From assembly GCA_022822185.1 (NCBI GenBank), contig JAJECE010000001.1, forward strand, positions 1 to 64,000: DNA of 64,000 nucleotides, given 5' to 3'. Source of the stretch: Rhodothermales bacterium (lineage in GTDB: Bacteria > Bacteroidota > Rhodothermia > Rhodothermales > Bin80). The notes under the pieces are model-generated. The model was not told the DNA's origin and made no database searches. It saw only the letters and a list, made by a program, of their open reading frames with translations. Position numbers and translations under genes: made by a program. Of the stretch, positions 7,414 through 52,700 are shown piece after piece (positions within the stretch are counted from its first letter, which is position 1; each line of letters opens with the position of its first letter).

Positions 7414-7427
7414 CTACTGGCAGTTTC

Positions 7428-7832: not shown

Positions 7833-7836
7833 CAAC

Positions 7837-15111: not shown

Positions 15112-15243
15112 TTCCAGTGTTCACTCAGATGGAGTCCAAAGATTGCACAAAATAGATTAGGTACAGACTAAGTTTGATGTTTTACGGGGGAACGGTCGTT
15201 CTCAATAAAAATTTCAACGGATGCTGCACAATTAGGCAACTTC

Positions 15244-32600: not shown

Positions 32601-32750
32601 GGCACCATAGAGGAACAGATCAACGAAATGATTGAACAAAAGCAGGAGGTTGCAGACAGTATCGTCGGGACCGGCGAGCAGTGGATTACCGAACTCTCTA
32701 CCCGTGACCTTAAAAAAATACTCCGACTACAAAAAGGAGCTGTCCAGTAG
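29658..32750 (+). CDS. SNF2-family DNA-dependent ATPase/helicase
   Basis: The protein has 1030 residues. The C-terminal half is a SNF2 motor: motif I DDMGLGKTPQTL (Walker lysine near residue 584), motif II DEAQNIKNP near 680, motif III ALTGTPVENNVGELWS, then HELICc motifs including LFLHGGIPKKHRDRMVERF, LKAAGTGLNLTRANHV and the final RAFRIGQKKHVQVYKF. The N-terminal 550 residues match the long helical region usual in the bacterial SNF2 proteins that pair with SWIM-finger partners. The start is taken at ATG 29658; a TTG two codons earlier is possible. It lies 38 bases before the SWIM gene. Likely role: remodelling nucleoprotein or RNA polymerase complexes, by analogy to RapA-like enzymes. Confidence 0.9.
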   Translation: MVVLHLGACDGQLFLWGETPPGSKTKPKTGSSPSLPYNTTAKALVSAASEGGLRLQVKRAVPLHVWLPAWDGVPLPSSPLIADTPTEDTDPVLALWRITAIALSDDEAFHFLAACYGKEMLAPGVILGSDIRFFKKILRFTSALVTREQFLPGVGEQDGEFQAVWEPVFLSNDSDKLTTLAGVMPQVCRALSHKAKKAPRESSISVVSKVVNRFVDYLVRLSWMEKRPARTRSRKASKKSYASVHDQWIQALRIWNGSMSGGTEELEHLAGQIRAWRRSISVSAIAPFRLSFRLEEPEEQEYADLWYVRYLLNAVDDPSLFIEVADAWDPGKQTKSILARRQANIQEYLLTSLGHVSSLDPVLEESLKQPRPGGAILDTAGAYVFLTETAWLLQQAGYTVQLPAWWSSTAGARNKLSVSASISSPSMKSAGSLSLDKVVEFDWKIALGNEKLTLQELETLAEMKMPLVKIRGQWVQFDAKAIQEAIDFWKKKSRSQSVTARDVVHMALGLAETPEILPFEGVEATGWVGDLLDSLEHGAEIEEIPVPAQFEGTLRPYQSRGYAWLAFLKRWGFGACLADDMGLGKTPQTLVFIQHNWETNDQRPVLVVCPTSVMGNWQKEAAHFTPYLPVMVHHGARRIKESEAFQEEAEKHAIVITSFPLLHRDFEALGQVNWAAVILDEAQNIKNPNTKQAKAARALQSDFRVALTGTPVENNVGELWSIMEFLNPGFLYSQAKFKRNFFVPIQVDRDMKAVERLKKITGPFILRRLKTDKTIINDLPEKQETNVFTNLTKEQGSLYRAVVKEISDSLEGAKDDGIKRKGLILATLMKLKQICNHPAQFLHDGSAIPERSGKLTRLIEMLEEVYEVGDRVLIFTQFTEMGTMLQRHLQETFGHEALFLHGGIPKKHRDRMVERFQEDEDGPLFFILSLKAAGTGLNLTRANHVFHYDRWWNPAVENQATDRAFRIGQKKHVQVYKFVCTGTIEEQINEMIEQKQEVADSIVGTGEQWITELSTRDLKKILRLQKGAVQ

Positions 32751-32788
32751 AGATCAGAATATAGAAAATCAATCCGACGATTTGAAGG

Positions 32789-33649
32789 ATGTCCTATTAT
32801 GACCATTATTATTTCCCGCCTTCCCGGCCGCGCTCGGTCGAAGGAGGGATCAAGGCACAGTCAAAACGGGGCGAGTTTGGACAGACATGGTGGGGCCGCC
32901 GCTGGGTTCAGAAGCTTGAGAGTTTTTCCATCGGAGCCCGTTTGGGGCGTGGGAAGTCCTATGCCCGCAGAGGGCAGGTGCTGTACATTGACATTTTGAA
33001 GGGGAAGGTGGATTCTGCGGTTCAGGGTTCCCGCAGCGGATCGTATGATCTTGAGATTAAACTAAAAGTCTACAAACGTACAGAATGGAAAAAACTGGCA
33101 GAATCTTTGCGGCAGCAGCCTTTCTATGTGGCACGGCTTCTGTCGGGGGAGATCCCGGAGGACTTTGAGCGGATTATGAAAGAGCATAGGATGCCGCTTT
33201 TACCCGAACCCAGGAACGATCTCAAGATGGAGTGTGACTGTCCAGACTGGTCGAATCCATGTAAGCACATTGCGGCGGTCATTTATTTGTTGGCGGAAGA
33301 ATTTGACCGTGACCCGTTTCTGCTTTTTGAACTGCGCGGAATCACCCGCGAACAGTTCCTCTACGAAATCACCGGAGCCAAGGCAGTGAAAAAGAAAGAT
33401 TCGGATGAGGCAGAGGAAACAGCCCAGGCACCGGTTCCGCTAAGTCCGGGGGATGATTTCTGGGAGGAGGGGGCGTTGCCTGATGATTTTTACGGAGTCG
33501 TCCGTACTCCGCCTGCACCGGCGGCATTGCCGAAACGTCTGGGCAAGTTTCCCTTCTGGCGTGCAGAAGAGTCACTTTCGGATGTACTGGATCCCCTGTA
33601 CAAGAAAGCCTCACTGCGTGGACTGAGAGTTTTCCAGGGCGAAGATTGA
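32789..33649 (+). CDS. SWIM zinc-finger protein, SNF2 partner
   Basis: The protein has 286 residues. The SWIM finger is explicit: Cys149-x-Cys151-x6-Cys158-x-His160 in ECDCPDWSNPCKHIAAVIYLL, followed by the conserved FDRDPFLLFELRG. The N-terminal GEFGQTWWGRRWVQKLE is also conserved in these partners. The C-terminal third is acidic and proline-rich. SWIM domains bind DNA or proteins. The gene follows the SNF2 gene closely, and this pair occurs together in many bacterial lineages, so the two probably act as one complex. Confidence 0.88.
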   Translation: MSYYDHYYFPPSRPRSVEGGIKAQSKRGEFGQTWWGRRWVQKLESFSIGARLGRGKSYARRGQVLYIDILKGKVDSAVQGSRSGSYDLEIKLKVYKRTEWKKLAESLRQQPFYVARLLSGEIPEDFERIMKEHRMPLLPEPRNDLKMECDCPDWSNPCKHIAAVIYLLAEEFDRDPFLLFELRGITREQFLYEITGAKAVKKKDSDEAEETAQAPVPLSPGDDFWEEGALPDDFYGVVRTPPAPAALPKRLGKFPFWRAEESLSDVLDPLYKKASLRGLRVFQGED

Positions 33650-36061: not shown

Positions 36062-36988
36062 TCAATCAGGAAACAGTTCAAGTTGCCCACTTGTGCAGTG
36101 CTGTTCAGGCCGGTTCCCATTCCGGTTATGAATGAGCGGGATTAAATCATCGGGGCCATCAATCCATGTTGCATTTCGCGTTTGGACAATGTCAGCATTT
36201 CCCTGTACACTGGGGTGGTGTAATTCACTTTCGTGAGGTCGCAGGCACAAGATCGTTTTTTGTTGGGTTTGGGCAAATGCAGCGGTATGGTGTGTGCCGC
36301 CGTGGATCCCCGTCTGGATGACAACTAAAATATCTGAGAGTGCGCTTTGCAGTCGGTCACGGGCAATGAATGACCATTTTCTGGCTTGAATGCCTGGGGG
36401 ATATTCGCTCAAGAGGCAGCCCCCTTTTTCGATGATTTGATTTGCCAGATTCCCATGCTCCCGCGGATACACCATGTCCAGTCCATGAGCAAGTATGGCT
36501 ACAGCGATACCACCTTCATCTAAGCAACCGGCATGACCATGATAGTCACACCCATAGGCGAGGCCGCTTACGACAGGTAGGTTGTTCTGAGCTGCGATAC
36601 AACCCAGATCATATGCTGCTTTGCTTCCCCTGTCCGTAGGTTCACGCGTTCCAATGATTGCGACAACCACAGAATTGCTTTGAAGCGCCTCGTGGGCCCC
36701 CTTGAGGTATATCACGGGCGGCCTGTCTTCCCGTATTTCGTGAAGTTTCTCTGGATAGTTCTCATCTATTACTGTAACCACATTTATATTTGACTGGAGG
36801 CATTCATCCATGATTTGTAGGGCTTGATCCCACGCATGTGCGGTTTCCTGTAATGGATGTCCAAACCTAGAGTTAACAAAGTCGGCAAACTCCACAGGGC
36901 CACTTGGCACATCGCTGGCTATTTTGAGCACTGTCTTTGCCCCAATCCCGGGTAGATGTTGGAGTGCAATGAGCGGAATGTCTTTCAT
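36062..36988 (-). CDS. dprA: DprA/Smf-like DNA-processing protein
   Basis: The protein has 308 residues. An N-terminal helix-hairpin-helix (LPGIGAKTVLKIA) precedes the Rossmann-like DprA core: VVVAIIGTREPTDRGSKAAYDLG, VVSGLAYGCDYHGHAGCL, VYPREHG, LLSEYPPGI and FIARDRLQSALSDILVV. Normal DprA loads RecA on incoming single-stranded DNA during transformation. This protein lacks the C-terminal winged helix seen in many housekeeping copies and sits in a defence island beside an adenine methylase, which suggests a defence or mobile-DNA variant. A decayed gene lies immediately upstream. Confidence 0.85.
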   Translation of the reverse strand: MKDIPLIALQHLPGIGAKTVLKIASDVPSGPVEFADFVNSRFGHPLQETAHAWDQALQIMDECLQSNINVVTVIDENYPEKLHEIREDRPPVIYLKGAHEALQSNSVVVAIIGTREPTDRGSKAAYDLGCIAAQNNLPVVSGLAYGCDYHGHAGCLDEGGIAVAILAHGLDMVYPREHGNLANQIIEKGGCLLSEYPPGIQARKWSFIARDRLQSALSDILVVIQTGIHGGTHHTAAFAQTQQKTILCLRPHESELHHPSVQGNADIVQTRNATWIDGPDDLIPLIHNRNGNRPEQHCTSGQLELFPD

Positions 36989-37675: not shown

Positions 37676-38146
37676 ATGACACATGAACAAAATCCCCCCC
37701 CCCATTTTTTATCTAAAACCCCGGTTTTAGTACTCTTATTCACAGTTACAGGCTGTTCCCGACTTGATACGGTCTGCCAGAGCGGTTTTTCAGGCACCAA
37801 CTACACCTTCGGGTTTATAGAGACACTCGTTCTGGCGGTGTTGGTCACTCTTGTTATCTGTACAGTCTTCTATTTGCTGCAAAGTCGGGCGGTGCACAAA
37901 TGGAATCTCCGGAGAACTGAGTCGGCACCGAAGCTTTCTGCTGCTCCGTTATTTCCGTTTATCATCATACTGCTCCCGTTTTTTCTTGCAGGACCTTTCG
38001 TAGGTGCTGATTGCTCTGATGCGCAGAAGTGGACTCATGTTTTAGGAGCGTTCCTGGGATGCGTTGCCGGTTGTGCAATGGGCTTTACGATTTTTCATGC
38101 AAGAACGCGGCCCTACAAGAAGAAATCCAGCCAAGAGAGAAAATAA
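37676..38146 (+). CDS. Small multi-pass lipoprotein-like membrane protein, first gene of new operon
   Basis: The protein has 156 residues from ATG 37676. A short N-terminus leads to a hydrophobic stretch ending in a lipobox-like VTGC (Cys27). Three further hydrophobic segments follow at about 45-68, 92-112 and 121-141, with a basic C-terminal tail. It is not a family I recognise. It lies 11 bases before the 1686-residue fusion gene. A C10 tract sits at codons 7-10, so slippage could switch the gene on and off. Position at the head of the operon and membrane location suggest it anchors the system to the envelope. Confidence 0.6.
   Translation: MTHEQNPPPHFLSKTPVLVLLFTVTGCSRLDTVCQSGFSGTNYTFGFIETLVLAVLVTLVICTVFYLLQSRAVHKWNLRRTESAPKLSAAPLFPFIIILLPFFLAGPFVGADCSDAQKWTHVLGAFLGCVAGCAMGFTIFHARTRPYKKKSSQERK
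37694..37703 (+). repeat. C10 homopolymer in the 5' end of a coding region
   Basis: Ten consecutive C bases encode the Pro run at codons 7-10 of the first gene of the operon. Tracts of this length in early coding regions are classic sites of slipped-strand phase variation. The next base run is T6. It could also be a site of sequencing error, which would move the true start. Confidence 0.6.
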
Positions 38147-38157
38147 TCTGAAAAGAC

Positions 38158-41100
38158 ATGAATAATCGTTTCATCGCGTGTGGGGGCACAGGTGCCCATG
38201 TAATGCTGGCAATGGTGCGTCTCCATATGTTGGGATACCCATTTGGCTTCTTTGTCAAAACAGGCAAAAATTTCCCAGACCTGTTTCTGGTTGATCAGGA
38301 CTCTGGTGATGGGAAAGAACAGGAGGAAAGTACGCCCTGGCAGGAAGTCAAAAACTTGATCAAGAACCACCCGGGTAAGTATGATCTTTCAGAATTCTTC
38401 GGTCGTTCAGACCGCCCAATCTGCCGGGATGTCAGTCCATTACCCGTGGGTAAAGACAAAGATTGGTATAAGCCCCCAAATCATCGCCTGAAGTACAAGT
38501 TCAAGGGATCGCCCATACTCCCGTTAATCACATCCGAAGCACAGCGGGAGATCACCTATTCTCTGGGGATGATGGCCTCCCCATCGGTGGGGTCGCTACT
38601 GTTTGCACTCAAAGAACTAGATATTGAGGGGAAGGGTAAGCCGAATTACGATGAGGCTTATAACGATATGCTGAACGATTGTGGTGATCGGAGGATGGTG
38701 GTTTGCGGTTCAAGTGTCGGCGGAACAGGTTCATCTGTCACTCCAACTCTCGCCCGTCTGTGTAAGGAAAAGAAAGCTGAGGTGATGGCGATCATGGTGC
38801 ATAGATGGTTCCAGTTCAGCAGGCCTGATGAATCAAGGGAGAAGTTTGACAAGTCCGTTGAACGCAATAAGGTGATGAAGGAGAACGCAGCAGGTGGACT
38901 TGCATCCTATGGGGAAGACTTGGCCAGGAAAGTACCTACCGTTCTGGTAGGCGTGCCGGATCATAGAAGAATATTGCGCCAATACACATCCGACAATCAA
39001 CAGCCCTCCCTGGACTCCTATGCCCATGCGGTCGGGGCACTGGCAGGAATAAAATATTTTTTGACGACGAAGGATCGTGAAATCAAAGAAGGGCTGTATG
39101 GCGTGTCGGCATCGGATGCTGATTATCTGACCGGTGATATGATCATTAAGGAGGATAATGGCGCTACCTTGCGTGAGATGATCGGTCATGCACAGATCCT
39201 CACGTATCTACTCGGAGAGTTTTCCGATGTGTTAAGAAAAACGGGAGAGAACGCGAAAGACGGAGGGTACGCATCTTTTTCTAATTTCTTTATTTTTGCC
39301 GGTCAGACCCCTGTCCCTGCCATTGTTGACTGGGCAAATTCAGAGTTGCGGAATGATCGTTCAAGCCTGAAAGAAGTCGCAGATGAATTGGATTCCATCC
39401 GGCATAGCTATCGGGAGCTTCTGGCATGGATATCGTCACTGGGGAAGGAAAGCCGGGGAGATATTCAATATGAGAGCCGCAGTGTGGAGGAGAAGGGAGG
39501 AAAATTCTTTCTTTCGGAGAAAGAATGCATTAAACGACTGAAAAAGAATTCACTGCCCAGTGTTTCCGAGTTACAGAATGCACGCCTGTCCGATTTGGAC
39601 AAGGTTGAGTGTATGGCATTGGCTCTTTTTCATTGGCTTGCGCACTGGATTAAAGATGAATGGGAGAATCTGCAATTGACCAAAAAGTCAGGGAAGGCAC
39701 GCGAAGGGCAGGGCTACTGGCCTGATATTGATTCCAAAGATGATACGGGGCTCTTACCGACATGGGGGGCACCCGGTGAATTGGGAAAGGTGTCGGATGA
39801 CAAGATTAGTAGTACGATTGAGTATTACTTTGACCGTGACCATGTGTCCCCCAATAGTTGGCCACATCATATTGCGGTGGTAGAGGAGTACAAGTTCCAG
39901 ATTGTAAATCAGAGTCCTGTTGCTCTGCGCAAACTTGAAATGCTCTTGGTGGGACGGGCGCTTGGCGTACTGGAACTGCAGAAGGTTGAAACCAGAAATG
40001 GGCGAAGTTTTCTGTCTCTTGAGCGTCTGCTCAGGGATACAGATATAGCGGAGTACCTTCTGATTCATCAGAAGAGCGGTAAGGTGTATGGGTTCAATTC
40101 ACCGGAGACATTTCTCTGTCCCGCGCCAGATGTAAGTAATGAAGATTGGGAAAGTCTCTGGAAAGACTTGACGGGGATTCATTGGGATGTTGACTGGAGA
40201 TCAAAGAATTGGAGAGATGAAGTCGGAAAAGCCGGGAAATATCTCGGCGGCACCCTCAAGCGTGCAGCAGACCGCGTGAAAGACAAAGTTGGTTCTGACA
40301 ATCAGGACAAATCCGCCTGGAGGGATTCTACGGATTGGGGGTTCGAAGGGGAAAAAGCCAGAAAGTGTGTCAGAGGTTGGCTGAAATGCGTGGAAAGCCA
40401 TGTTAAGGACAAAGTTGTCAAAGAGACTTCCCGGATATGGGTTGATGTCTTAGACACACATCTGGACGCGGAAGCCGGCCCGTTTGGGGTTGCAGAATGG
40501 CTTCCTTTACCAGATGGCAACGTAAAAATCCCCATGCCCGTTATGGGGGATTCTCTGTATCTGTTTGAAGATCTTGATCCCGGCAGAAAAGGTGCGGAGA
40601 AAAGCATAGATGAATTGATCAGCGGGGTCCCCGATTTTGAAAAGTGTACCGTTGAGAAATCTGGCAAATCTGAAACATTCGAGATCATCAAGAACTTTCG
40701 ATTGCCCAGAAATATTGACTATCCGATTGGAGCAATATGGAGGGAGCATTTGGATCAACTTCAGGAAACGGGTAAAATCTTTGCATGGAGGAGGGACCAA
40801 GAGAATAGAGGCATCTGGATCAGGGAAACGTTAGGCGAAGAGCCAATCTATATTCGGAATCTACAGGTCATTGACAGGGAAACGATTCAGATTGATACCT
40901 GTGTCCCTCTGACCCAAAAATCGGTGAATGGAACCGGAGAAAATAAAACGCTATATCCAGATATTCCGCTTCGCCCCGACTACATTGATCTCTTGAAGAT
41001 CCCGAAAGGTGAGAAAAATGAGGGAGAAAAATGCATAGATCACGACCATGCCTGGAGACGGCTCAAACAATCCGGTGATGTAGATAGAGGGCGTAAAGTC

Positions 41101-43218
41101 GTTCATTGGAACTTGGATCTTCTGGGGCGATCTGAGCCAGTTCCGGTCACGATTTCTGTGGATGGTATCGAATCTTCAAATGCTCACTGGATGATTTGGC
41201 CCAACATTAAAGCGCCGAGCGGGAAGGAGCAGTGGCGGGCTTATTATCTGTATGAGCATTCTCCAAGACTGGAGGCTCAAACCATTTATCTGGACCAGAA
41301 AGGCAGTCTGTCCGAGTTGAAGAAGCGACCACTGAGTCGCCCTGGATACAGCCAGGCTGTGGATTTCAAGGATGGCCGACATGTGGGAGGGCCGCCTGTA
41401 GCTTTATCGGCCTACGATCACAAAACAGATCGTGATGCGGGGATCTATGTAATTTGCCTGAAGGAATATTCCAGAGACGAGAATATCTGGAAACTCGCCA
41501 TAGATTTTGGGACCTCCCATACCGTTGCCGCATACCAGATTAATGAGAGACATTCGGTCAATCTTGACAATGAACTGTCGGGTGAGGATGGCTTGTCGTT
41601 GCATATCAGTCAAAACTATGATGGTCACCTTGCAGAGATGGGACTGGATACATGGCGACCAACCTACAAAAAGGGGGAAGAGGACAAAATATCAAAGGCG
41701 CTACTGCCGTCAGATCTCTGGTCTTTCGGAGAACTTGATTCTGTAGAGACCGAGAGATTCAGGGATGAATGGGCTCCGATGACGCATTATGCAATCCCCG
41801 TTATGCAACTGCAGCGTTCAGATCTCCAGAATCATATTATATCCGGGTTCAAATGGGAGATGGATAGAGGTCGATTTACGCAGAAGGAACAATGGCTCCG
41901 GGAGAGATATCTAAGGATGGCAATTGAGATTTTCCTGGCAGATATCGCTAAGCGTGAAGAGAGTTTGCCTGGGACAGTTGAGGTCACTTTCACGTACCCA
42001 CTGCGTGGAACCACCACGCAGGCTACAAGTCGTTATGGGGAAGTAGTCGGTAAGGTATTGGAGGTCTGTGCAGCAGATCTTGGATCGAAGTTCAGGCTCA
42101 CGGAAGGCCGTGAAGGGGCCAAAGGTAATGGGCTATACAGCGAGTCAAGTGCCGCATTCGATTCAATAGGGCCAGGAATTCCGATTGCGGTGAAACTTGT
42201 GGCTGATTTAGGTGGTGGAACGTTGGATATATTCATGGCGACGAAGGATATAGACAGTTATGGGTCTGAGGACAGGGGATTTGGCGAGGTGGCGGAAAGT
42301 GTAAAGATGGGGAGCGATCTTCTTCTTCAAGTTTTAGCAAGGCACTCAGAGAAATACTTGCCAAGGAATAGAGGCTGGAAGCCGGATAAGGCATTTGAAC
42401 AACTACGTGCGTGGATGCGTTCGGTTGGATCAGAGAAATTGTTCGGAACTCAGAGCAGGAACTGGAGTGTTGATGCTTTAAAACTTAAGGGGTTTGAAAA
42501 GCCTCAGGATGCCAATGATGCAAGGGAATTAATCAATCGATACTTCCGGGTCATTAATGATTTTCTGGCTCGCAACCTCGTCGCCTATGTTGCGAAAAAT
42601 GTCTTACCGTTATTGGAATCGGAGAGCGATCTTCAGAAGTTGAAACTCATCGTCCATCTCAAGGGGAATGGGTGGCGTCTTTGGTACCGTAGAACGAGTT
42701 ATAAGGAGATTCAGGAAGATATGGAAGAGTGGGTGAAGCAGCGTGCCATCAAACTTTGGAAAGAAGTAGGCTTTGAGGGTATTTCACTAGAAAAGGTGTG
42801 GTACCCGGCTGATTACAAGGACGATTCGCCGCCGAAGCTCGGACCAATTAAGCATGCGGTCGGCAAGAGTATGAGCCCGGAGAAAGCGGTTGCGGGAAGC
42901 CATCGCTTTCCTTTGTCGGATGTGCTGCTTCTTAGTAGAGGGACCGAAGATGAACGGAGAAATTGGTATGAGAAACTTCCATTTGAGGGAGTCAGCAGGT
43001 CGGTTAGTTTGTGTATTGGTGAATTCAATCCACCGCTCATTATACATTCTCCAAATAGTGGCGAAGGCGTAAAAAGGATTGAAGATGTGTTTATGAAAGA
43101 AATTAACGACAGCATTTCGGGTGACGAGGCAACACGGAGTGATGATACGGTAGATGCACCGATTGCAGCCCTTATCTGGGAGAATGTGCTCAAGTCAAGG
43201 GAATTCCAGGAAGGATAG
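38158..43218 (+). CDS. Tubulin-like / Hsp70-actin-like NTPase fusion protein
   Basis: The protein has 1686 residues. The N-terminus MNNRFIACGGTGAHVMLAMV has the glycine-rich first loop of tubulin/FtsZ-like GTPases, and residues 184-193 (CGSSVGGTGSS, GGTG at 188-191) match the tubulin signature loop GGGTGSG; this is closest to the tubulin-like (Tubulin_2) families. The middle 800 residues are unrecognised. From about 1110 an Hsp70/actin-fold ATPase begins: phosphate-1 motif LAIDFGTSHT (Asp1116) and phosphate-2 motif VADLGGGTLDI (Asp1350). No signal peptide or membrane segment is seen, so it is cytoplasmic. It may be a nucleotide-driven filament or chaperone-like motor. Spacing of 11 bases from the gene before it and the shared strand place it in the operon 37676-47590. 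Confidence 0.8.
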   Translation: MNNRFIACGGTGAHVMLAMVRLHMLGYPFGFFVKTGKNFPDLFLVDQDSGDGKEQEESTPWQEVKNLIKNHPGKYDLSEFFGRSDRPICRDVSPLPVGKDKDWYKPPNHRLKYKFKGSPILPLITSEAQREITYSLGMMASPSVGSLLFALKELDIEGKGKPNYDEAYNDMLNDCGDRRMVVCGSSVGGTGSSVTPTLARLCKEKKAEVMAIMVHRWFQFSRPDESREKFDKSVERNKVMKENAAGGLASYGEDLARKVPTVLVGVPDHRRILRQYTSDNQQPSLDSYAHAVGALAGIKYFLTTKDREIKEGLYGVSASDADYLTGDMIIKEDNGATLREMIGHAQILTYLLGEFSDVLRKTGENAKDGGYASFSNFFIFAGQTPVPAIVDWANSELRNDRSSLKEVADELDSIRHSYRELLAWISSLGKESRGDIQYESRSVEEKGGKFFLSEKECIKRLKKNSLPSVSELQNARLSDLDKVECMALALFHWLAHWIKDEWENLQLTKKSGKAREGQGYWPDIDSKDDTGLLPTWGAPGELGKVSDDKISSTIEYYFDRDHVSPNSWPHHIAVVEEYKFQIVNQSPVALRKLEMLLVGRALGVLELQKVETRNGRSFLSLERLLRDTDIAEYLLIHQKSGKVYGFNSPETFLCPAPDVSNEDWESLWKDLTGIHWDVDWRSKNWRDEVGKAGKYLGGTLKRAADRVKDKVGSDNQDKSAWRDSTDWGFEGEKARKCVRGWLKCVESHVKDKVVKETSRIWVDVLDTHLDAEAGPFGVAEWLPLPDGNVKIPMPVMGDSLYLFEDLDPGRKGAEKSIDELISGVPDFEKCTVEKSGKSETFEIIKNFRLPRNIDYPIGAIWREHLDQLQETGKIFAWRRDQENRGIWIRETLGEEPIYIRNLQVIDRETIQIDTCVPLTQKSVNGTGENKTLYPDIPLRPDYIDLLKIPKGEKNEGEKCIDHDHAWRRLKQSGDVDRGRKVVHWNLDLLGRSEPVPVTISVDGIESSNAHWMIWPNIKAPSGKEQWRAYYLYEHSPRLEAQTIYLDQKGSLSELKKRPLSRPGYSQAVDFKDGRHVGGPPVALSAYDHKTDRDAGIYVICLKEYSRDENIWKLAIDFGTSHTVAAYQINERHSVNLDNELSGEDGLSLHISQNYDGHLAEMGLDTWRPTYKKGEEDKISKALLPSDLWSFGELDSVETERFRDEWAPMTHYAIPVMQLQRSDLQNHIISGFKWEMDRGRFTQKEQWLRERYLRMAIEIFLADIAKREESLPGTVEVTFTYPLRGTTTQATSRYGEVVGKVLEVCAADLGSKFRLTEGREGAKGNGLYSESSAAFDSIGPGIPIAVKLVADLGGGTLDIFMATKDIDSYGSEDRGFGEVAESVKMGSDLLLQVLARHSEKYLPRNRGWKPDKAFEQLRAWMRSVGSEKLFGTQSRNWSVDALKLKGFEKPQDANDARELINRYFRVINDFLARNLVAYVAKNVLPLLESESDLQKLKLIVHLKGNGWRLWYRRTSYKEIQEDMEEWVKQRAIKLWKEVGFEGISLEKVWYPADYKDDSPPKLGPIKHAVGKSMSPEKAVAGSHRFPLSDVLLLSRGTEDERRNWYEKLPFEGVSRSVSLCIGEFNPPLIIHSPNSGEGVKRIEDVFMKEINDSISGDEATRSDDTVDAPIAALIWENVLKSREFQEG

Positions 43219-43264
43219 ATTCCAGAGGGCCGTCACCTGCTGAAGTGAAAGATGGGAGTCGTAC

Positions 43265-43819
43265 ATGTTTGTGATCACAATGAATGACCCAAGTCTAAAT
43301 TTTGAAGGCTTCATGCTTCTTGTGTCCCATCTGTCGCTGATCAGCATTTCTCTATACGAAGCAGTCCTGCTGCGGATTTCTTCTCTCCTGGTCAAATGGG
43401 GGGCGATTCCAGTTGTCCAGTCAGTGATTGAAAAGCTGGTTTACCTTGATGCAAAAATACACCGCCGCCCTGCTTCGATGGATCAACGTGTCCTTCAAAA
43501 TATGTTGTATGTTGCAGAGAGTTTGCCCCGATTTCAGACAATGAGAGAACTTCCGGCAGAAGTGCAGGGGGATTCCAAGGCAGTTCATCCTTCTTCACAA
43601 AAATCCCCTTGGCGGAGTAATCCAATTTCATCTAGGTTACTTTCTCTACCGGTCAGAGGGGCGATGAAATTGGCGAATGGAGTACTGCGGTCACTTGACC
43701 GCCGCCGGAATCATCAAGTCTCAATCCTCAGGGACGCATTAAATCGTCTGGAAAGCATTCTGGAATTCGTTGCGGATTTGAAATCCACCGGTAAACCACG
43801 AACACAGACACAAATATGA
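43265..43819 (+). CDS. Hypothetical protein of the fusion operon
   Basis: The protein has 184 residues. The first 40 are hydrophobic and helical (FEGFMLLVSHLSLISISLYEAVLL), the rest basic and helical with a likely short coiled coil near the end (LRDALNRLESILEFVADL). I recognise no family. ATG 43265 is the longest start; ATG 43280 is equally possible. Its stop overlaps the next gene start as ATGA at 43816-43819, so the two are translationally coupled. It could be a small adaptor between the cytoplasmic fusion protein and the membrane parts. Confidence 0.55.
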   Translation: MFVITMNDPSLNFEGFMLLVSHLSLISISLYEAVLLRISSLLVKWGAIPVVQSVIEKLVYLDAKIHRRPASMDQRVLQNMLYVAESLPRFQTMRELPAEVQGDSKAVHPSSQKSPWRSNPISSRLLSLPVRGAMKLANGVLRSLDRRRNHQVSILRDALNRLESILEFVADLKSTGKPRTQTQI

Positions 43820-45183
43820 TACGGAAAGTCTCCAATAGCGACACGCAGTGGTGGATGACAATCGTGGGTGCAGGACTTCTGGTGACCGGGATGTTTTTGC
43901 AAATTGGCTGTGTCTCATCTTCGGATGGAGAAGAAGGTGAGTTTCTCAGCGTCACTGCGGAAGTTGAACCGGTATGGGAGGATTCGGAGGCATTATGGGA
44001 ATCGGTAGACCGTGACTCGGTCACGCATGTTTTTCAACTTCTTTGGGATCAGTCTATTCCAATGGGGGGATATGTTCATCGGACGAATCCAGACAGCCAG
44101 GACGCGCTTCAGAGGATCCACAATTTATTGAAGAGTGCGCGATTGACCACAGATTATGGGGGCGGGGAGTCTTCGCTCAAGTGCCTTGGAATCACGGATT
44201 CCATTACAACGGTAGATTGTGAAAGCACTTTGAACAGAGGATTTTTTACCGGTGGAGAATCCCGTCTGGATCAGGGCATTCGAGATGTGATTGAAGGACT
44301 CAAGAGCGGCACGCTCAAAGGAGCAGCATTGGTTACTGATTTGATTACGACTACCAACTATGGAATCGGGGCTACAGCCCTGCTGCCGTACTTCAAAGAT
44401 CCAGCAATAAGGGCATACTACAATGCAGGCGAAATTGATGTTGCCATCGTAGGGATTCGCATTGATTACTGGGGGGTACACAGTGGAACGTGTCGTTCGG
44501 TACCCGGACCTTTAGGTTGCTGGTTTCATGAAGGCCAACAGCGCTATCAGTCCATGGAAGCAGTTGCGAAGAGGCCAATCTATGTTCTCATTATGGGACG
44601 GAGGCCAGAGGGGGATAGCCGTGAAAACAACCCTGTACACAATCTGGCAACGGAGTTTACGGAGTCTATTGAGGATATTGGATTGGGTGTGAAGCATACG
44701 ACCATAACTCTAGGCTCCTTAACCGGGCAGGCCAATTTCGAATGGCTGGCTTATGAAGGAACAGGTTTTCAGCCCGTTGGGCTTGATAAGGAGCGCGGTT
44801 ACTATTGCAAAGACAGTGGAACACATAGTTTGGCCGGCAGATTTGCAGACAGTCTGGTGACGATTACATCGGTGGAAACGGATGATGTTAAGGGGATCAT
44901 TCGCGTGAGTAAGGACGATGATGAGATCGCGCAGATCAACATGGACCTCAACTGTAAGGTGCTCCGAGAAACGATCCGTGAGGATCGTACCGGAGTGTGC
45001 AGTGATACATCTATTGATGTGGGAGTAGAGTATGGAGAGTCCACGGATTGGGCCGACTGGTCTTCAGTTGAGCATCGTAGCGATCTCACCCTTGGGCTTG
45101 AGCAATTCATGGAAGGCATACAGCCCAGTTACTATCAATCAAAGATACCTTCTCCGAAAATCCGGGAGTGCGAGAGTAAATAA
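43816..45183 (+). CDS. Exported vWA-like protein of the fusion operon
   Basis: The protein has 455 residues. An N-terminal hydrophobic stretch ends at FLQIGC (Cys32), which resembles a lipobox although Gln at -3 is atypical. The body looks like a von Willebrand A-type domain: a first MIDAS-like motif DQSIPMGGYV (Asp78, Ser80) followed by a helix, and a second acidic position in AALVTDLI, then strands such as EIDVAIVGIRI and RPIYVLIMG. vWA domains bind proteins through a metal ion. Many cysteines in the second half suggest an oxidising periplasmic location. It is coupled to the gene before it by ATGA and lies 2 bases before the MotA-like gene. Confidence 0.6.
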   Translation: MIRKVSNSDTQWWMTIVGAGLLVTGMFLQIGCVSSSDGEEGEFLSVTAEVEPVWEDSEALWESVDRDSVTHVFQLLWDQSIPMGGYVHRTNPDSQDALQRIHNLLKSARLTTDYGGGESSLKCLGITDSITTVDCESTLNRGFFTGGESRLDQGIRDVIEGLKSGTLKGAALVTDLITTTNYGIGATALLPYFKDPAIRAYYNAGEIDVAIVGIRIDYWGVHSGTCRSVPGPLGCWFHEGQQRYQSMEAVAKRPIYVLIMGRRPEGDSRENNPVHNLATEFTESIEDIGLGVKHTTITLGSLTGQANFEWLAYEGTGFQPVGLDKERGYYCKDSGTHSLAGRFADSLVTITSVETDDVKGIIRVSKDDDEIAQINMDLNCKVLRETIREDRTGVCSDTSIDVGVEYGESTDWADWSSVEHRSDLTLGLEQFMEGIQPSYYQSKIPSPKIRECESK

Positions 45184-45185
45184 AT

Positions 45186-46934
45186 ATGGGATTTATCGCT
45201 GCACTGATTCTTATCATAGAAATTGGGGCGTTCGTTTTTCTGATATGGTGGCAGAAAAAAGTTTTTGGAGATTCCGACCGTGCTTTAAGAGAAATTGACC
45301 ATATCCTGAGTCTGAAAAAGTTTGACATCAAGGATGTCACCGCATCGGATATAGTCATTGATCAGTTTGATCGGATGGTGGAACTTCCCCTAGAGAAAAT
45401 CCGGTCATTTTCCAATGCTGCCCTTGTAGCCGGTATCGGGGGGACAATGGGTATTTTTCTTCTGGAGGCAATTTCCACAGGGCTATGGGTAGGTTATTCA
45501 AGAGATATAAGTTCCGTGTGGTTTGGGGCGATTATTTTGGGCCTCCTCCTTGCCTTGCTTTCCAGTTTAATTGGTGTCTTTAATCATCTCCACATTACAT
45601 CTAGTATATTGTCCACCGCACATGACCAGATAAGCAAGAAGGAAGCCGAACTACTGGATGCGCAGGCACAAGAGAAAGTCCCAGAATCCGAATTAAGTAA
45701 ACAACTAGAAGAGTTGACAGAGGCATGGAATGAGGCGGATGCTTTGGATCTTTTTGAGATGATTCCAGAGTTTCTTCAAGGGCAGACCGCCGTGATGAAT
45801 GATATGCAGAGGCGTTTTGGAGAACAACAGGCTATTGTTTGGGATGCATTGGAAAATCAGAAAGATGTTACCCAAAAAATCGACGAAGTGCTTATAGAAT
45901 TAAAGAATTATTCAAGGGAGCAGCAAGGATCCGTCGCAAAAATCCAGGCAGATCAGCAAAACTTGCTGGAGAGAGTTGATGATTCTCTAAGAAGACTGAT
46001 TAATGAAAGAAAATCCCTAACAACAGAAATTGAGCGGCTGCCCGGTAAAATCCAAAAATCAATTAACGCGGAGAAGATAGGCGAGATTTTTGGAAGGCAG
46101 GCAATAAACTATGTGAAGGGGTTGGAAGACGCTTTTCAGGAAACAGTGTTCCGGTTCGGGGAGTCGCTTAAAAGTAATCAAAAGCACCTGATCAACAGGA
46201 TTGTCAACGAGAATCAGGCAGTAATCAAACCCCTGTCCGAATTTACAGGAGAGGTTAAAAACAGTCTGGATCATCTGTTTAACAAGCTCGTCAGCGAGAA
46301 TCAGAGAATCATGGAGGGCTTTTCCGAATTCACAGATTCACTTGAAAATAGTCAGGCTATCCAGATCAATAAGCTCATCAGCGAGAACCAGACGGTAATC
46401 AATTCCTTATCCGAATTCATCAGATCGCTTGAAAGTAGTCAGGATCGTCGGTTCGGGAGTCTCGTCAGCGAGAATCAGAGAATCATTGATTCTTTATCCG
46501 AATTCACAGACTCACTTGAAAATAGTCAGGCTATCCAGATCAACAAGTTCATCAGCGAGAACCAGAAAATCGTTGATTCTTTCGGCGAACTTCGCGATAA
46601 AATGGAGGAGCATATTGTTAATCCTCTGGGAGGAATAGCTGTACGATTGGAGGAGACGGCGGCGACGATGCCTGGGGCTGCACAGCAGTTTGGGGATAAA
46701 TTACGAGAAGCCGTGCAAGTTCTATCGGGGATTCCAAAGGAATTAGAGGAAGTGGGGACGAATATCAACGAGGTGGTAGGTTCGACTACCGCGGAAGCGT
46801 TAGCCCCACTCTCTGACAAGATGAACAGATATATTGAAACTGTTCAGCATACACACGAGAGCCTGGAAAAAATTATCCAAGGCCTTGTTCATCTTATTCG
46901 GGACATGGTTAAGGAGATGGAAAGGGAAAAGTGA
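45186..46934 (+). CDS. MotA/ZorA-like membrane protein with repetitive coiled-coil tail
   Basis: The protein has 582 residues. Three transmembrane helices are at about 2-22, 76-100 and 111-133, the middle one opening with SNAALVAGIGGTMGIFLL, which recalls the GLLGTVxGI core of MotA/TolQ/ExbB-type proton-channel subunits. The long cytoplasmic tail is mostly coiled coil. Residues 341-456 are four tandem 29-residue units with consensus SENQ-I--LSEFT-SLE-SQ---NKL, plus a partial fifth. This layout (three helices, then a long tail) resembles ZorA of Zorya. The stop overlaps the next gene start (TGATG). It probably forms an ion-driven stator with the next protein. Confidence 0.7.
   Translation: MGFIAALILIIEIGAFVFLIWWQKKVFGDSDRALREIDHILSLKKFDIKDVTASDIVIDQFDRMVELPLEKIRSFSNAALVAGIGGTMGIFLLEAISTGLWVGYSRDISSVWFGAIILGLLLALLSSLIGVFNHLHITSSILSTAHDQISKKEAELLDAQAQEKVPESELSKQLEELTEAWNEADALDLFEMIPEFLQGQTAVMNDMQRRFGEQQAIVWDALENQKDVTQKIDEVLIELKNYSREQQGSVAKIQADQQNLLERVDDSLRRLINERKSLTTEIERLPGKIQKSINAEKIGEIFGRQAINYVKGLEDAFQETVFRFGESLKSNQKHLINRIVNENQAVIKPLSEFTGEVKNSLDHLFNKLVSENQRIMEGFSEFTDSLENSQAIQINKLISENQTVINSLSEFIRSLESSQDRRFGSLVSENQRIIDSLSEFTDSLENSQAIQINKFISENQKIVDSFGELRDKMEEHIVNPLGGIAVRLEETAATMPGAAQQFGDKLREAVQVLSGIPKELEEVGTNINEVVGSTTAEALAPLSDKMNRYIETVQHTHESLEKIIQGLVHLIRDMVKEMEREK
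46206..46640 (+). repeat. 87-bp tandem repeats within the MotA-like gene
   Basis: Units start at 46206, 46293, 46380 and 46467, each 87 bp, with a partial fifth from 46554. Units 2 and 4 are nearly identical at base level over the segment coding for EFTDSLENSQAIQINK, which shows recent duplication. Copy number would set the length of the cytoplasmic rod. Confidence 0.85.
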
Positions 46935-47590
46935 TGAGGCGGAAGCGGACTAGGGTTACGGTATGGCCCGCAATCACCGATTTGATGACGGCAATCCTGA
47001 TCATTGCATTTCTTTCGGGTACGGTTACGGTGGCCTACATCAATAATAATTCGGCCGATGATGGATTAGATAATCCAGAAATCGATGAGATGCTCCGTGA
47101 CTCAATAAGCGAATTGCAAACCCAGGTAGACAGCCTCCTGGATGTGTTTGACGAATATCTAAATGAATATCCAAGTGCTCAGTTGGTGATTGTTCTTAAG
47201 GACTCCATCGAGAATTTGCTGGACGATGAGGGGAAAATCGGGAGTCGCAGTTGCCTGGGCAGAGACGAAGATAAGCAGCCCAATTCCCCCATGACGATCC
47301 GAGTGAATCCAGCGGACTACCAAATTAGATTGAATACCCAACTCATAGAGTCTGGGTGGCATGGGTTACAGCAGTATGTTCGCCCGTATGATCAAAGAGA
47401 ACTCAGTGAATCCGAAATGATTGACTTTGCCAGAGAGATGTATAGACTAGGAGACGGGCGCATAGAAGGGAAGTGCAGATTCTTTGTGCGTCTAGAAAAA
47501 AGTGAGGAAGTGTCGCAGGAAGCGCTTGTGCTAAGGTGGAATAATTTGAAAGACTATTTTGCCGGGCTTACCAATCCGAGCGTACTGTAA
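46934..47590 (+). CDS. MotB/ZorB-like plug protein, last gene of the fusion operon
   Basis: The protein has 218 residues from ATG 46934. A basic N-terminus is followed by one transmembrane helix with the MotB-plug pattern VWPAITDLMTAILIIAFL; Asp16 lies where MotB and ZorB carry the proton-binding aspartate. A short coiled coil follows (ISELQTQVDSLLDVFDEYL). The C-terminal 100 residues (MTIRVNPADYQIRL, CRFFVRLE) are not an obvious OmpA-type peptidoglycan-binding domain. It pairs with the MotA-like protein encoded just before, with overlapping TGATG. It may anchor the stator in the periplasm through the vWA-like protein rather than the cell wall. Confidence 0.68.
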   Translation: MRRKRTRVTVWPAITDLMTAILIIAFLSGTVTVAYINNNSADDGLDNPEIDEMLRDSISELQTQVDSLLDVFDEYLNEYPSAQLVIVLKDSIENLLDDEGKIGSRSCLGRDEDKQPNSPMTIRVNPADYQIRLNTQLIESGWHGLQQYVRPYDQRELSESEMIDFAREMYRLGDGRIEGKCRFFVRLEKSEEVSQEALVLRWNNLKDYFAGLTNPSVL

Positions 47591-49835: not shown

Positions 49836-51689
49836 TTATTTGACAAGGCTCTCCCCGCTGGAGCTGCGAGTCACTTCTTCGGTTGGCACGAAATAGCGCC
49901 AGAAATCCCGTGTCAGTTCTCGGTTCATTTCAGGCATATCTCGTCTGAGGTGCGTCCAGAATTCCTTCTTTTTCGCCCATTCCGAGCAGTTGTCAATCGG
50001 TCTGTCGTCAAGGTATAAAACATCTCTGACGAAGGTTGCAATCAGGGCAAGCTGGTCTCGGAAGGAATCGTCAATTCCCTGATCTTTCCAGATTTTCTGG
50101 TGGTCCAACATCCTGTCCCTGTTTTTTCCGAGCACATTGGCGGTTGCGATTGTATATGCTACAATATTGGCTCGATACCCGCTCCGCTTCCGATACCAGT
50201 ACTGCCGTGAGATGAGTCGCTCGGTTTCTTTGAAAACGATGGCACGGGCGACCACCCTTTGATAATAGGTCTCGTCAAACTGCTCTGAGGACTCCTCCCA
50301 TGCCTTGCTGATCCTCTCCATATACTGGATAAAATTCTTCTGTGCCCCTAAGTTCACCCAAAACGGCTCTTCATCCCAGACATTCTCGAATTTAGCAAGA
50401 TCAGTCTTGGTGAATCTTTTAGGGTATTCCGTCTTGAATCGCTTCTTTTCTCCCGGGGTCATTCGGGATTGAGCATCCGCATATTGCCCCCGGGAGCGTT
50501 CATAGAACCACTTTGTCTCCTTAAACTGACCTTCAATGGCGGGAACCCATATACGGCGGGAGAATTGTTCCATCTGAACATGGAATGGATGATTTGACCG
50601 GAGGTCCGGAATGCTCACTCTATTCTGGGTGTTTGCATATTTGGCAATGTTGTGCACGATCTCCATGCTGCGGTTGTCGCTTATCTCAGAGAGTTTCATC
50701 TGGACGAAAACCTTGGACAGATCCGGCGGATTTTTGGCCTGAGATATGTGGTACAGCGAGGCGGTCGTCTGCCCGCCATTCACAATCTGGAGATCCCGGA
50801 TATGAATAATCCTGCTCCGGTCCTCATTGAGTTTAATATCCCGTGCAGTGGCGGTTATACCGTTGTTGTAGGCAAAAAAATTATGGGGTTCTTCGATCAG
50901 AGTATCACGAATGCCTTTATTTACATTTCCGCGTGCCTGCAGGAAGCATCGAACATTCTGCTCCAGCAGGCGTGCGCCGAACTCTTCATACAGACCCGCC
51001 AGAATTTTCCCGGAAATCACCACGAGGTAGGTGCGGAAAACATTGGTCCCCACATGTGCCCTGAGACATGGTAACCCTTGCTGAAACATGGCCTTGAAAT
51101 CCACATCAAGCGGTTCCTGACCTCCGCGTGAACAGTACTGCCGGTGCAGCCGTGAGATATCCCAGATGGAGTAGACTGCTTTAACACCGCTTAAATCGTG
51201 CGTATCAAGCACCTTTTTGTGTGTGCTCAGTTTCCGCTCAGAGGATAAGATGAAGTTGACGCGTCGGATCCGGTCTTTCCGGTCATAGATTCCGCGGGCT
51301 AACCGATACTCAGTTGCTGTTTCATCAAGATCCAGATGGAGATGGTTATTTCTGGCAGTCAGAAAAAATCGGCGGCATTTCCCAAACACACTTTCATAGT
51401 CTTTCTTGTTCAGTGATTCAAGTGCAATTCTGTTTTCAAAATCGGCAATATGCAGATCCAGTGTGGTGCCATCTTCATTGAAATAGAATCCATCCACCTT
51501 GATGCCGCCTTTTTTGCCGCTGTCCCGGTCGTAATAACAGGGTTCAAATCCATTAATCGCACCGGTCTCTTTCAGTTCTTCTGAGACTGTTTCAAGAAAA
51601 GTGCTGCGTTGAAAGTTGTTCCGGGTTTCTGCATCAATCTGCAATTGCCTGCGGAACTCGTTAAAATACTCCTCAAGTGTCAGTTGCAT
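49836..51689 (-). CDS. AIPR family abortive-infection protein
   Basis: The protein has 617 residues from ATG 51689 (MQLTLEEYFNEF). The AIPR core is clear: TYLVVISGKILAGLYEEFG, RDTLIEEPHNFFAYNNGITATA, LQIVNGGQTTASLYH and VHNIAKYANTQNRVSIPDL. AIPR proteins were named for abortive-infection phage resistance, and their exact activity is not settled. It is the last gene of the six-gene operon and overlaps the DUF4420 gene by 10 bases. An upstream start at 51704 is open but adds only five residues. Confidence 0.88.
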   Translation of the reverse strand: MQLTLEEYFNEFRRQLQIDAETRNNFQRSTFLETVSEELKETGAINGFEPCYYDRDSGKKGGIKVDGFYFNEDGTTLDLHIADFENRIALESLNKKDYESVFGKCRRFFLTARNNHLHLDLDETATEYRLARGIYDRKDRIRRVNFILSSERKLSTHKKVLDTHDLSGVKAVYSIWDISRLHRQYCSRGGQEPLDVDFKAMFQQGLPCLRAHVGTNVFRTYLVVISGKILAGLYEEFGARLLEQNVRCFLQARGNVNKGIRDTLIEEPHNFFAYNNGITATARDIKLNEDRSRIIHIRDLQIVNGGQTTASLYHISQAKNPPDLSKVFVQMKLSEISDNRSMEIVHNIAKYANTQNRVSIPDLRSNHPFHVQMEQFSRRIWVPAIEGQFKETKWFYERSRGQYADAQSRMTPGEKKRFKTEYPKRFTKTDLAKFENVWDEEPFWVNLGAQKNFIQYMERISKAWEESSEQFDETYYQRVVARAIVFKETERLISRQYWYRKRSGYRANIVAYTIATANVLGKNRDRMLDHQKIWKDQGIDDSFRDQLALIATFVRDVLYLDDRPIDNCSEWAKKKEFWTHLRRDMPEMNRELTRDFWRYFVPTEEVTRSSSGESLVK

Positions 51690-52684
51690 CGGTTCACGTT
51701 CCAAATTGTTTCAAGTGGGCAGATGAAAGGTTCTAGAGACTCAATCTGCAGCTGGTATTTCACATTCTGAATTCCATCGGGTATTTGAGACCGGATAATC
51801 CGGGGGAACTCATCGGTGATTTCGTATACGCGTATTTCAGCAATCTGCATGGATGGATTGTCATAGTAGGGGAGTTCCACATACCCGGCTTCGGCAAGTT
51901 TGGTCTGATACTCATCACGTACGGAGCTTCCAGTCAGATCACTTTCAATCCTCGTGACCATTTCGTTGAGTGAGATGGCCGAGGAGAGTTCAGAACTTTC
52001 AATGATACGATTTGCCGTGAGATACAGTTTTTCCGCCGGGCTCTCCAACTGGTTTTCGGAGGCGATGTTGAAAAGATTAGGCCCCTGATTCGAAATGGTT
52101 TTGATTTCTGCGGCCGTGTTTCCAAACACGAAGTCCTGATTTCCCCCCTTCGGTCCAATCCAGGCACTGAGTGCTTCATCGTGATTCAGGAGATGCGTGT
52201 AGAGCAGTTTGAGAAAATGCAGTTCTGCAAAAAGGCCGCGGACTTCCCAGGGAGACAGCAGGCGCGGTCTTTTTCCTGCAAGGAACCGCTGCCAGCGTTT
52301 TAACTGATTCAGCGCAATGGTCAGAGCAGTTCTCGAATTTGAAACATCACGGAGATTCCGCGTCAGTGGTTTGCAGAGTGCATAGAAAAGATCAAGATTG
52401 GAATGACTGGTTAGAGTGAGCACCAGCGTCTGCTCCTGTTTTCTTGAACGCTGACGCAGATCAACATCAATACCTTGAATGTTCAGATTTGCGTTCAGGA
52501 ATGCTTTCTGATGATCTCCTTCAAGTTCCGTAATGAGAAGGCAGTTCCCGTGCACATCTTTGCCCCAGAAAGTGGGGATCAGCGCATTGGAATATACGCG
52601 CCGAACATTGTAGTCTGCATCGGGCTGCCTGATGTCATCCCAGGGGGTGGTGTGCGGTTGAGATTCAGGATAGTCGGTTGTCAT
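51680..52684 (-). CDS. PD-(D/E)XK nuclease-motif protein, DUF4420
   Basis: The protein has 334 residues from ATG 52684. The nuclease-like core is visible: Glu154 in GLFAELHFL, Asp184 in GNQDFVF and the Glu193-x-Lys195 pair in AAEIKTI, matching the order of a PD-(D/E)XK active site. It is likely the DNA-cutting subunit of the operon, or one of two. The gene lies 16 bases after the Z1 stop and overlaps AIPR by 10 bases. A longer open frame up to 52792 would overlap the Z1 gene and shows no family similarity in its extra residues. Confidence 0.83.
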   Translation of the reverse strand: MTTDYPESQPHTTPWDDIRQPDADYNVRRVYSNALIPTFWGKDVHGNCLLITELEGDHQKAFLNANLNIQGIDVDLRQRSRKQEQTLVLTLTSHSNLDLFYALCKPLTRNLRDVSNSRTALTIALNQLKRWQRFLAGKRPRLLSPWEVRGLFAELHFLKLLYTHLLNHDEALSAWIGPKGGNQDFVFGNTAAEIKTISNQGPNLFNIASENQLESPAEKLYLTANRIIESSELSSAISLNEMVTRIESDLTGSSVRDEYQTKLAEAGYVELPYYDNPSMQIAEIRVYEITDEFPRIIRSQIPDGIQNVKYQLQIESLEPFICPLETIWNVNRCN

Positions 52685-52700
52685 AATAGGCGGTATGATT

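What the first reader, a model, noticed from the sequence alone, without database searches (positions are those of the whole stretch)
37676..47590. Six-gene operon joining tubulin-like, actin-like, vWA-like and MotAB/ZorAB-like parts: a possible new system
The genes are tightly spaced on one strand: 11-base gap, 46-base gap, ATGA overlap, 2-base gap, TGATG overlap. They encode a membrane lipoprotein-like protein, a cytoplasmic two-NTPase fusion, a small unknown, an exported vWA-like protein, a three-helix MotA-like protein with a long coiled coil, and a MotB-like plug protein. The logic is an ion-driven stator in the membrane coupled to a nucleotide-driven cytoskeletal protein inside and a metal-dependent adhesion domain outside. 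It is flanked by a DprA/methylase region and by an ImmA/IrrE pair plus an MZA-like operon. Zorya uses ZorAB with ZorC/D or ZorE; none of those is here. I recall no named system with this composition. The defence role is inferred from neighbours.
Basis: partly seen in the sequence, partly recalled or inferred. Interest (0 to 1): 0.93.

Follow-up and report, generated by a model that had tools for sequence, protein, structure and literature searches.

The report
Ion-motor operon with tubulin-chaperone fusion protein
A conserved six-gene set in one family of Rhodothermales bacteria joins a membrane ion motor like that of the Zorya phage-defence system to a giant protein that fuses a tubulin-like and an Hsp70/actin-like domain, a combination I found described nowhere; what it does for the cell is unproven.

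Summary
Six tightly spaced genes (37676-47590) form a real, conserved operon. The giant protein (B) and the vWA-like protein (D) occur in exactly the same 8 of about 113 Rhodothermales-order genomes, all in one family. In all five loci with complete operons the six-gene order is kept, interrupted only by one transposase gene. Most genes are under purifying selection. One copy is a 10.5-kb insertion into a gene that is uninterrupted in three relatives.

Domain calls: B = tubulin-superfamily domain (Foldseek top 50 all FtsZ/tubulin) fused to an Hsp70-like ATPase domain. D = exported, probably lipidated vWA fold. E/F = MotAB-class ion-motor pair closest to ZorAB, ion-path residues invariant, no OmpA peptidoglycan-binding domain. 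A = small multi-helix, lipoprotein-like. C = poorly conserved.

It is not Zorya: ZorC/D/E are absent from the operon, although a ZorD-like helicase lies 5 kb upstream in this copy only. The closest precedent is the FtsZl1/vWA 'membrane-remodelling' class (Makarova & Koonin 2010); one Bacteroidota FtsZl1 cluster also encodes vWA-like, small multi-TM and kinase-Hsp70 proteins as separate genes.

Best reading: an accessory, ion-powered envelope sensor/response machine, possibly anti-phage.

The parts
37676..38146 (+). Gene A: about 156 aa, lipobox-like ...VTGC plus about 3 membrane helices; small membrane component
   Evidence: Lipobox-like GC and 3 hydrophobic stretches; homologues or same-position genes in 7 loci; dN/dS 0.31
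38158..43218 (+). Gene B: 1686-aa cytoplasmic fusion, tubulin-superfamily domain + middle region + Hsp70-like ATPase domain
   Evidence: No TM-like segment; conserved over its length in 7 genomes, 35-97% identity; split in two ORFs in G012
38158..39105 (+). Tubulin/FtsZ-like domain of B (aa about 1-316): T1 loop ACGGTGAHV, T4 loop VGGTG(S/A)S, S6 VLVGVP; canonical T7 NxDxxD not found
   Evidence: Pfam Tubulin in 7/7 members at the T4 region, best E=0.0014; AF2 model -> 50/50 top PDB hits FtsZ/tubulin; motif table
41410..43215 (+). Hsp70-like ATPase domain of B (aa 1085-1686): phosphate-1 (I/V)DFGTS, connect-1 SES.AA, phosphate-2 DLGG.T.D, GNGWRL adenosine-like motif
   Evidence: HHalign vs Hsp70 sets E=1.5e-4 to 5.7e-4 and vs FtsZl1-associated kinase-Hsp70 E=4.9e-5; reversed controls 0.06-0.08
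43265..43819 (+). Gene C: 184 aa, poorly conserved, hydrophobic N-terminus
   Evidence: 28-29% to G008/G002 counterparts; dN/dS 0.55
43816..45183 (+). Gene D: 455 aa exported, probably lipidated vWA-fold protein; MIDAS-like DxSxP (44047-44061), S/T motif 2, D motif 3
   Evidence: AF2 pLDDT 68; Foldseek list dominated by vWA/I domains, none at E<=0.001; motifs
45186..46934 (+). Gene E: 582 aa MotA/ZorA-like motor subunit: 3 TM, invariant T87 (45444-45446) and S126-S127 (45561-45566), long cytoplasmic coiled-coil tail
   Evidence: PADLOC ZorA in 6/6 members, best 1.8e-11; TM part vs ZorA 2.1e-5; TM scan
46281..46582 (+). 87-bp (29-aa) tandem repeat in the tail of E; tail length differs between sister genomes (582 vs 524 aa)
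46931..47590 (+). Gene F: 218-219 aa MotB/ZorB-like plug: WPA.ADLMT with invariant Asp (46979-46981), one TM, periplasmic domain with two invariant Cys; no OmpA domain
   Evidence: HHalign vs ZorB N-termini 9.9e-6, reversed 0.02-0.06; PADLOC ZorB 0.0048; no OmpA hit; motifs

Best explanation
The operon encodes an accessory, envelope-spanning machine. E and F form a MotAB-class (by analogy 5:2) ion channel-motor in the inner membrane, with F's Asp and E's Thr/Ser forming the ion path. E's long coiled-coil tail reaches into the cytoplasm and acts on B. B is a two-switch protein: a GTP-binding tubulin (FtsZl1-like) module, probably able to assemble, and an ATP-driven Hsp70-like module. The vWA lipoprotein D and the small membrane protein A sit on the periplasmic side. 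When D/A or F's periplasmic domain is disturbed, for instance by a phage or another envelope attack, the ion path opens, E turns or changes its tail, and B assembles or changes state at that spot. The folds, motif conservation, topology and co-inheritance are shown. The 5:2 stoichiometry, ion flow, tail-to-B contact, B assembly and the trigger are inferred. An anti-phage purpose is the likeliest single role, but only modestly so.
For: Strict co-occurrence and conserved order. Motor pair closest to ZorAB: E TM part vs ZorA 2.1e-5 against 0.015-0.057 for ExbB/MotA-class sets; F vs ZorB 9.9e-6. Ion-path residues invariant. Tubulin fold, Hsp70 domain, vWA fold. Patchy (8 of 16 family genomes) and mobile: in G002 a 10.5-kb insert, 46% GC between 52-55% GC flanks, with a 208-bp direct repeat and empty sites in G005, G004 and G010. 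The window copy lies between a ShosA-like gene and an MZA system. Zorya precedent: ZorAB is proposed to sense envelope damage, and its cytoplasmic tail and ion flow are needed (PMC11890865).
Against: No nuclease or other killing domain was recognised. Four other independent copies are not among defence genes. The system was found in one family only; Zorya-type defence usually spreads wider (own knowledge). B and FtsZ divergence rank together, fitting partly vertical descent. F lacks the OmpA-type domain that ZorB uses to bind peptidoglycan. B-to-E contact is untested.
Confidence: 0.42

Rival explanations
1. A non-defence envelope machine in the FtsZl1/vWA mould: the ion motor passes force outward (as TolQR/ExbBD/GldL-M do) to D and the envelope, while B organises the site from inside; role in membrane remodelling, vesicle or surface functions.
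For: FtsZl1 operons with vWA and OmpA-family proteins were predicted to remodel membranes (PMC2875224). A Bacteroidota FtsZl1 cluster has vWA-like + small 3-TM + kinase-Hsp70 genes (G462/L176). Several copies lie in housekeeping surroundings. Restricted to one family.
Against: Patchy and mobile rather than fixed. Motor parts nearest to ZorAB, not ExbB/TolQ. No A3/A4 (motor) hit in 8 FtsZl1 neighbourhoods.
Confidence: 0.35
2. A Zorya subtype whose effector is the ZorD-like SNF2 helicase (29652-32750) lying 5 kb upstream, with B to D as extras.
For: That protein matches ZorD1 at 2.6e-139; E/F match ZorA/ZorB.
Against: The match covers the helicase part only and is nearly as good to DpdE. It pairs with a SWIM gene, is separated by other genes including one on the opposite strand, and none of the flanking genes scanned at the other copies is such a helicase. 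The genome already has a separate ZorA/ZorB pair with a ZorC-like gene (G000:C130). F has no OmpA domain.
Confidence: 0.06
3. Chance neighbours: two or more unrelated modules (tubulin/Hsp70/vWA and ZorAB-like) that happen to be adjacent.
For: E/F have no counterpart in the FtsZl1 clusters inspected.
Against: Same order in five complete loci with different flanks (G000 and its sister G006 share theirs); D in exactly the B-bearing genomes, 1 in 5x10^11 if independent and unrelated by descent; tight spacing and overlaps.
Confidence: 0.02

Closest known systems
FtsZl1 (Pfam Tubulin_2, PF13809) / vWA / OmpA operons, predicted membrane-remodelling system (PMC2875224)
   Same: Diverged tubulin with GGTG T1 loop, vWA partner, small membrane proteins; in G462 also an Hsp70-domain protein
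   Different: Tubulin and Hsp70 fused in one 1686-aa chain; B below the Tubulin_2 cut-off; a ZorAB-like motor in the operon, not found near 8 Bacteroidota FtsZl1 genes
Zorya (ZorAB + ZorCD or ZorE)
   Same: MotA-class subunit with long coiled-coil tail, ZorB-like TM with the ion-path Asp; accessory and mobile
   Different: No ZorC/D/E in the operon; F without OmpA/peptidoglycan-binding domain; tubulin-Hsp70 and vWA proteins instead
ExbBD / TolQR / GldLM motors
   Same: 3-TM topology, GT and A..SS..G motifs, Asp plug
   Different: Weaker sequence match than to ZorA; 430-aa cytoplasmic tail; no TonB/TolA/GldM-like force arm recognised
vWA + Hsp70-like modules in CoCoNuT/TerY-P conflict systems (PMC11090510)
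   Same: vWA and Hsp70-like modules combined in defence-related operons
   Different: No McrBC GTPase, kinase/phosphatase triad or nuclease here

Membership tests
Zorya | ZorA: 3-TM MotA-class subunit with long cytoplasmic tail | tested here: met
   partly resting on coiled coil, but the TM part alone scores 2.1e-5 against ZorA (about 30 columns)
Zorya | ZorB: TM with ion-path Asp | tested here: met
Zorya | ZorB OmpA-like peptidoglycan-binding domain | tested here: not met
   No OmpA hit in 6 members at E<=1
Zorya | Effector ZorC+ZorD or ZorE in the operon | tested here: not met
   No PADLOC hit for A-D; ZorD-like helicase 5 kb away in this copy only
FtsZl1 (Tubulin_2) system | Tubulin_2 domain over the Pfam cut-off | tested here: not met
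   Only 2/7 members, best E=0.077; HHalign E=0.0046 vs reversed 0.06
FtsZl1 (Tubulin_2) system | vWA protein in the operon | tested here: met
   (fold level, none at E<=0.001)
FtsZl1 (Tubulin_2) system | Coiled coil + helical C-terminus after the tubulin domain | tested here: not met
   B has a middle region and an Hsp70-like domain instead
Tubulin/FtsZ superfamily (domain) | Nucleotide-binding fold with T1 and T4 loops | tested here: met
Tubulin/FtsZ superfamily (domain) | T7 NxDxxD hydrolysis loop | tested here: inconclusive
   GLYGVSASD at the place proposed by eye; Asp not invariant
Hsp70/actin ATPase superfamily (domain) | Phosphate-1, phosphate-2 and connect motifs in order | tested here: met
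Hsp70/actin ATPase superfamily (domain) | Overall fold | not tested
   Structure jobs spent on D and B 1-720
vWA domain | vWA fold | tested here: met
   Foldseek: Rpn10 prob 0.99, 4jdu 0.96, SpaC, integrin I domains; E about 1e-3 to 1e-2
vWA domain | Canonical MIDAS DxSxS...T...D | tested here: inconclusive
   DxSxP, S/T, D
Anti-phage defence system | Enrichment in defence islands | tested here: inconclusive
   One of five independent contexts
Anti-phage defence system | Protection from phage | not testable with these tools
   Needs experiment

The most novel reading that the evidence does not exclude
An ion-driven rotary membrane motor directly drives or gates a cytoskeletal NTPase (a tubulin-Hsp70 fusion), turning an envelope signal from a vWA lipoprotein into local polymer assembly inside the cell: a new kind of transmembrane mechano-signalling machine, perhaps anti-phage.
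Probability: 0.25. Interest if true: 0.92.

Novelty: new variant of a known kind. Interest (0 to 1): 0.74.

Why it matters
It joins two poorly understood classes, ZorAB-type ion motors and FtsZl1/vWA tubulin systems, in one co-inherited operon, so each gives a testable handle on the other. A natural fusion of tubulin-superfamily and actin/Hsp70-superfamily modules in one chain is, to my knowledge, undescribed. If the motor's tail acts on B, it would be a case of an ion motor working on a cytoskeletal protein, and it would show what ZorAB-like motors do when no nuclease is present.

Tried and rejected
Zorya membership was rejected (no ZorC/D/E in the operon, no OmpA domain). Pfam, NCBIfam and PADLOC as sources of a ready name: nothing for A, C, D or F beyond weak hits. 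PDB sequence profiles: only weak FtsZ, coiled-coil artefacts and chance hits. HHalign of B's tubulin domain to FtsZ failed (E=0.17), to FtsZl1 weak (0.005); the fold search settled it. Sequence comparison of D with the FtsZl1-linked vWA proteins gave nothing (E about 0.3). Plasmids, phages and three viral-contig scans: no relative. The genome-contig scan found only the 97% sister; it uses exact peptide patterns and is insensitive. Profile searches could not leave Bacteroidota, so absence from other phyla is not shown. Literature: no paper found with this composition.
Full report
WHAT WAS CHECKED. The window is contig C18 of a Rhodothermales-type genome of 3.7 Mb; the nearly identical sister G006 matches record JAJECV010000070.1, 'MAG: Rhodothermales bacterium'. 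The six ORFs are present at the stated coordinates with spacings 11, 46, -4, 2 and -4 bases. B (1686 aa) was sought in 114 genomes of the order: 8 carry it, all in one family. A profile of D gave exactly the same 8 of 113 genomes and no stray. A profile of F in 394 phylum genomes gave only genomes with the operon, plus one marginal coiled-coil-region hit. Neighbourhoods keep A-B-C-D-E-F in G000, G006, G002, G011 (an IS3-like transposase gene between D and E) and G015 (F partly duplicated). In G007 C and D form one ORF; G008 and G012 are cut by contig ends, and in G012 B is split. dN/dS for window against G006 is 0.10 (B), 0.08 (F), 0.15 (D), about 0.3 (A, E) and 0.55 (C). This is a selected, co-inherited unit, and C is its least constrained part.

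PROTEIN B. All 7 members match Pfam Tubulin at the T4 region (best E 0.0014) and 2 match Tubulin_2 weakly. The AlphaFold2 model of residues 1-720 has moderate confidence (pLDDT 65, pTM 0.68), yet all 50 listed PDB matches are FtsZ, CetZ, PhuZ or tubulin (Foldseek probability 0.87-1.00, best E 1e-3). T1 (ACGGTGAHV) and T4 (VGGTG[SA]S) are conserved; the canonical T7 loop NxDxxD was not found, so hydrolysis by the usual route is doubtful. The C-terminal part carries (I/V)DFGTS, SES.AA, DLGG.T.D and GNGWRL in the right order. HHalign aligns it in register to Hsp70s of the same lineage (E 1.5e-4 to 5.7e-4; MreB 0.04; FtsZ 0.35; reversed controls 0.06-0.08). The Hsp70 fold itself was not modelled. 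No membrane segment was predicted.

PROTEINS D, E, F, A, C. D has a hydrophobic leader followed by a conserved Cys (probable lipoprotein). Its model (pLDDT 68) returns mostly vWA/I-domain structures, although none at E<=0.001; the MIDAS is DxSxP...S/T...D. E has three TM segments in TolQ/ZorA topology and a 430-aa coiled-coil tail with a 29-residue repeat. The tail alone attracts coiled-coil hits, so the TM part was tested separately: 2.1e-5 against ZorA, 0.015-0.057 against ExbB/MotA-class sets, 0.02-0.27 reversed; the ZorA alignment covers only about 30 columns. T87 and S126-S127, at the positions expected of the ion-path ring, are invariant. F carries WPA.ADLMT with an invariant Asp at the position essential in ZorB (D24N, PMC11890865), but no OmpA domain; two Cys in its periplasmic part are invariant. 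A is a small multi-helix, lipoprotein-like protein; C is variable.

CONTEXT AND MOBILITY. In the window the operon lies in a defence island: SNF2 helicase + SWIM gene, methyltransferase-like, ShosA/DprA-like, then HTH-ImmA/IrrE and MzaE-D-C-B with a C5 methylase. In G007, G002, G011 and G015 the flanks are ordinary genes. In G002 the operon is part of a 10.5-kb insertion: 208 bp of a symporter gene's start is repeated directly on both sides, the left copy is a remnant, and G005, G004 and G010 show the uninterrupted gene. The locus is therefore accessory and has moved. B divergence follows FtsZ divergence in rank where both were measured, so it has mostly stayed within the family.

CLOSEST KINDS. 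Two known kinds bracket it. (1) FtsZl1/Tubulin_2 operons with vWA proteins, predicted to remodel membranes (PMC2875224). B's T1 region resembles FtsZl1 (IGLGGTGGK; HHalign 0.005, reversed 0.06), though below Pfam's cut-off. A search of 394 Bacteroidota-phylum genomes found 9 with Tubulin_2. In one (G462/L176) the adjacent genes encode a vWA-like exported protein, a small 3-TM protein and a kinase-Hsp70 protein (Pfam HSP70 1.3e-9), whose Hsp70 part aligns with B's at 4.9e-5. So the toolkit tubulin + Hsp70 + vWA + small membrane protein occurs elsewhere as separate genes; here tubulin and Hsp70 are fused. (2) Zorya: E/F are nearest to ZorAB, but ZorC/D/E and the OmpA domain are missing. The genome also carries a separate ZorA/ZorB pair with a ZorC-like gene on C130. 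No ZorAB-like pair was detected around the 8 FtsZl1 neighbourhoods inspected, so the coupling of motor and tubulin-Hsp70 module is the new element.

MECHANISM. Shown: composition, folds, conserved active or ion-path motifs, co-inheritance, mobility. Inferred: a 5:2 motor; signal from D/A/F through ion flow and the E tail to B; nucleotide-dependent assembly of B; anti-phage use. The alternative, outward force for envelope remodelling, is nearly as likely. I put the defence-flavoured sensor model at 0.42 and the remodelling model at 0.35.

LIMITS. Profile searches reached only Bacteroidota; absence from other phyla is not established. Models rest on 8 sequences. The Hsp70 fold was not modelled. 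Only open-licence literature was searched.

Noticed in passing
window 29652-33649 (+): SNF2 helicase (DUF3670; ZorD1 2.6e-139, DpdE 7e-133 over the helicase part) followed by a SWIM zinc-finger gene: a separate two-gene cassette, possibly ZorD/DpdE-like.
   Followed up: partly
window 49836-58804 (-): MZA defence system: MzaE (AIPR), MzaD (DUF4420), MzaC (Z1), MzaB (HATPase) and a C5 DNA methylase.
   Followed up: partly
window 36062-36988 (-): DprA-like protein matching ShosA (3.4e-65); whether a ShosT partner is present was not checked.
   Followed up: no
L134 = G000:C130:12583-16882: A separate ZorA/ZorB pair followed by a ZorC-like gene in the same genome, with counterparts in G005 and G009.
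   Followed up: partly
L019 (G002:C129) 3408-3615 and 14101-14308: 208-bp direct repeat from a sodium/sulfate symporter gene flanks the operon; the left copy is a remnant with both gene ends; empty sites in G005, G004, G010. Looks like single-crossover integration.
   Followed up: yes
L176 (G462) 3923-12511: FtsZl1 cluster with a protein kinase-Hsp70 fusion, a vWA-like exported protein and a 3-TM protein: a possible 'unfused' relative worth its own survey.
   Followed up: partly
L020 (G011) 15056-16063: IS3-like transposase gene inserted between D and E of the operon.
   Followed up: no
L022 (G015) 9060-9858: Partial tandem duplication of E's end and F; the first F copy is shorter.
   Followed up: partly
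window 46281-46582: 29-aa repeats in the coiled-coil tail of E; tail length differs between near-identical sisters (582 vs 524 aa).
   Followed up: partly
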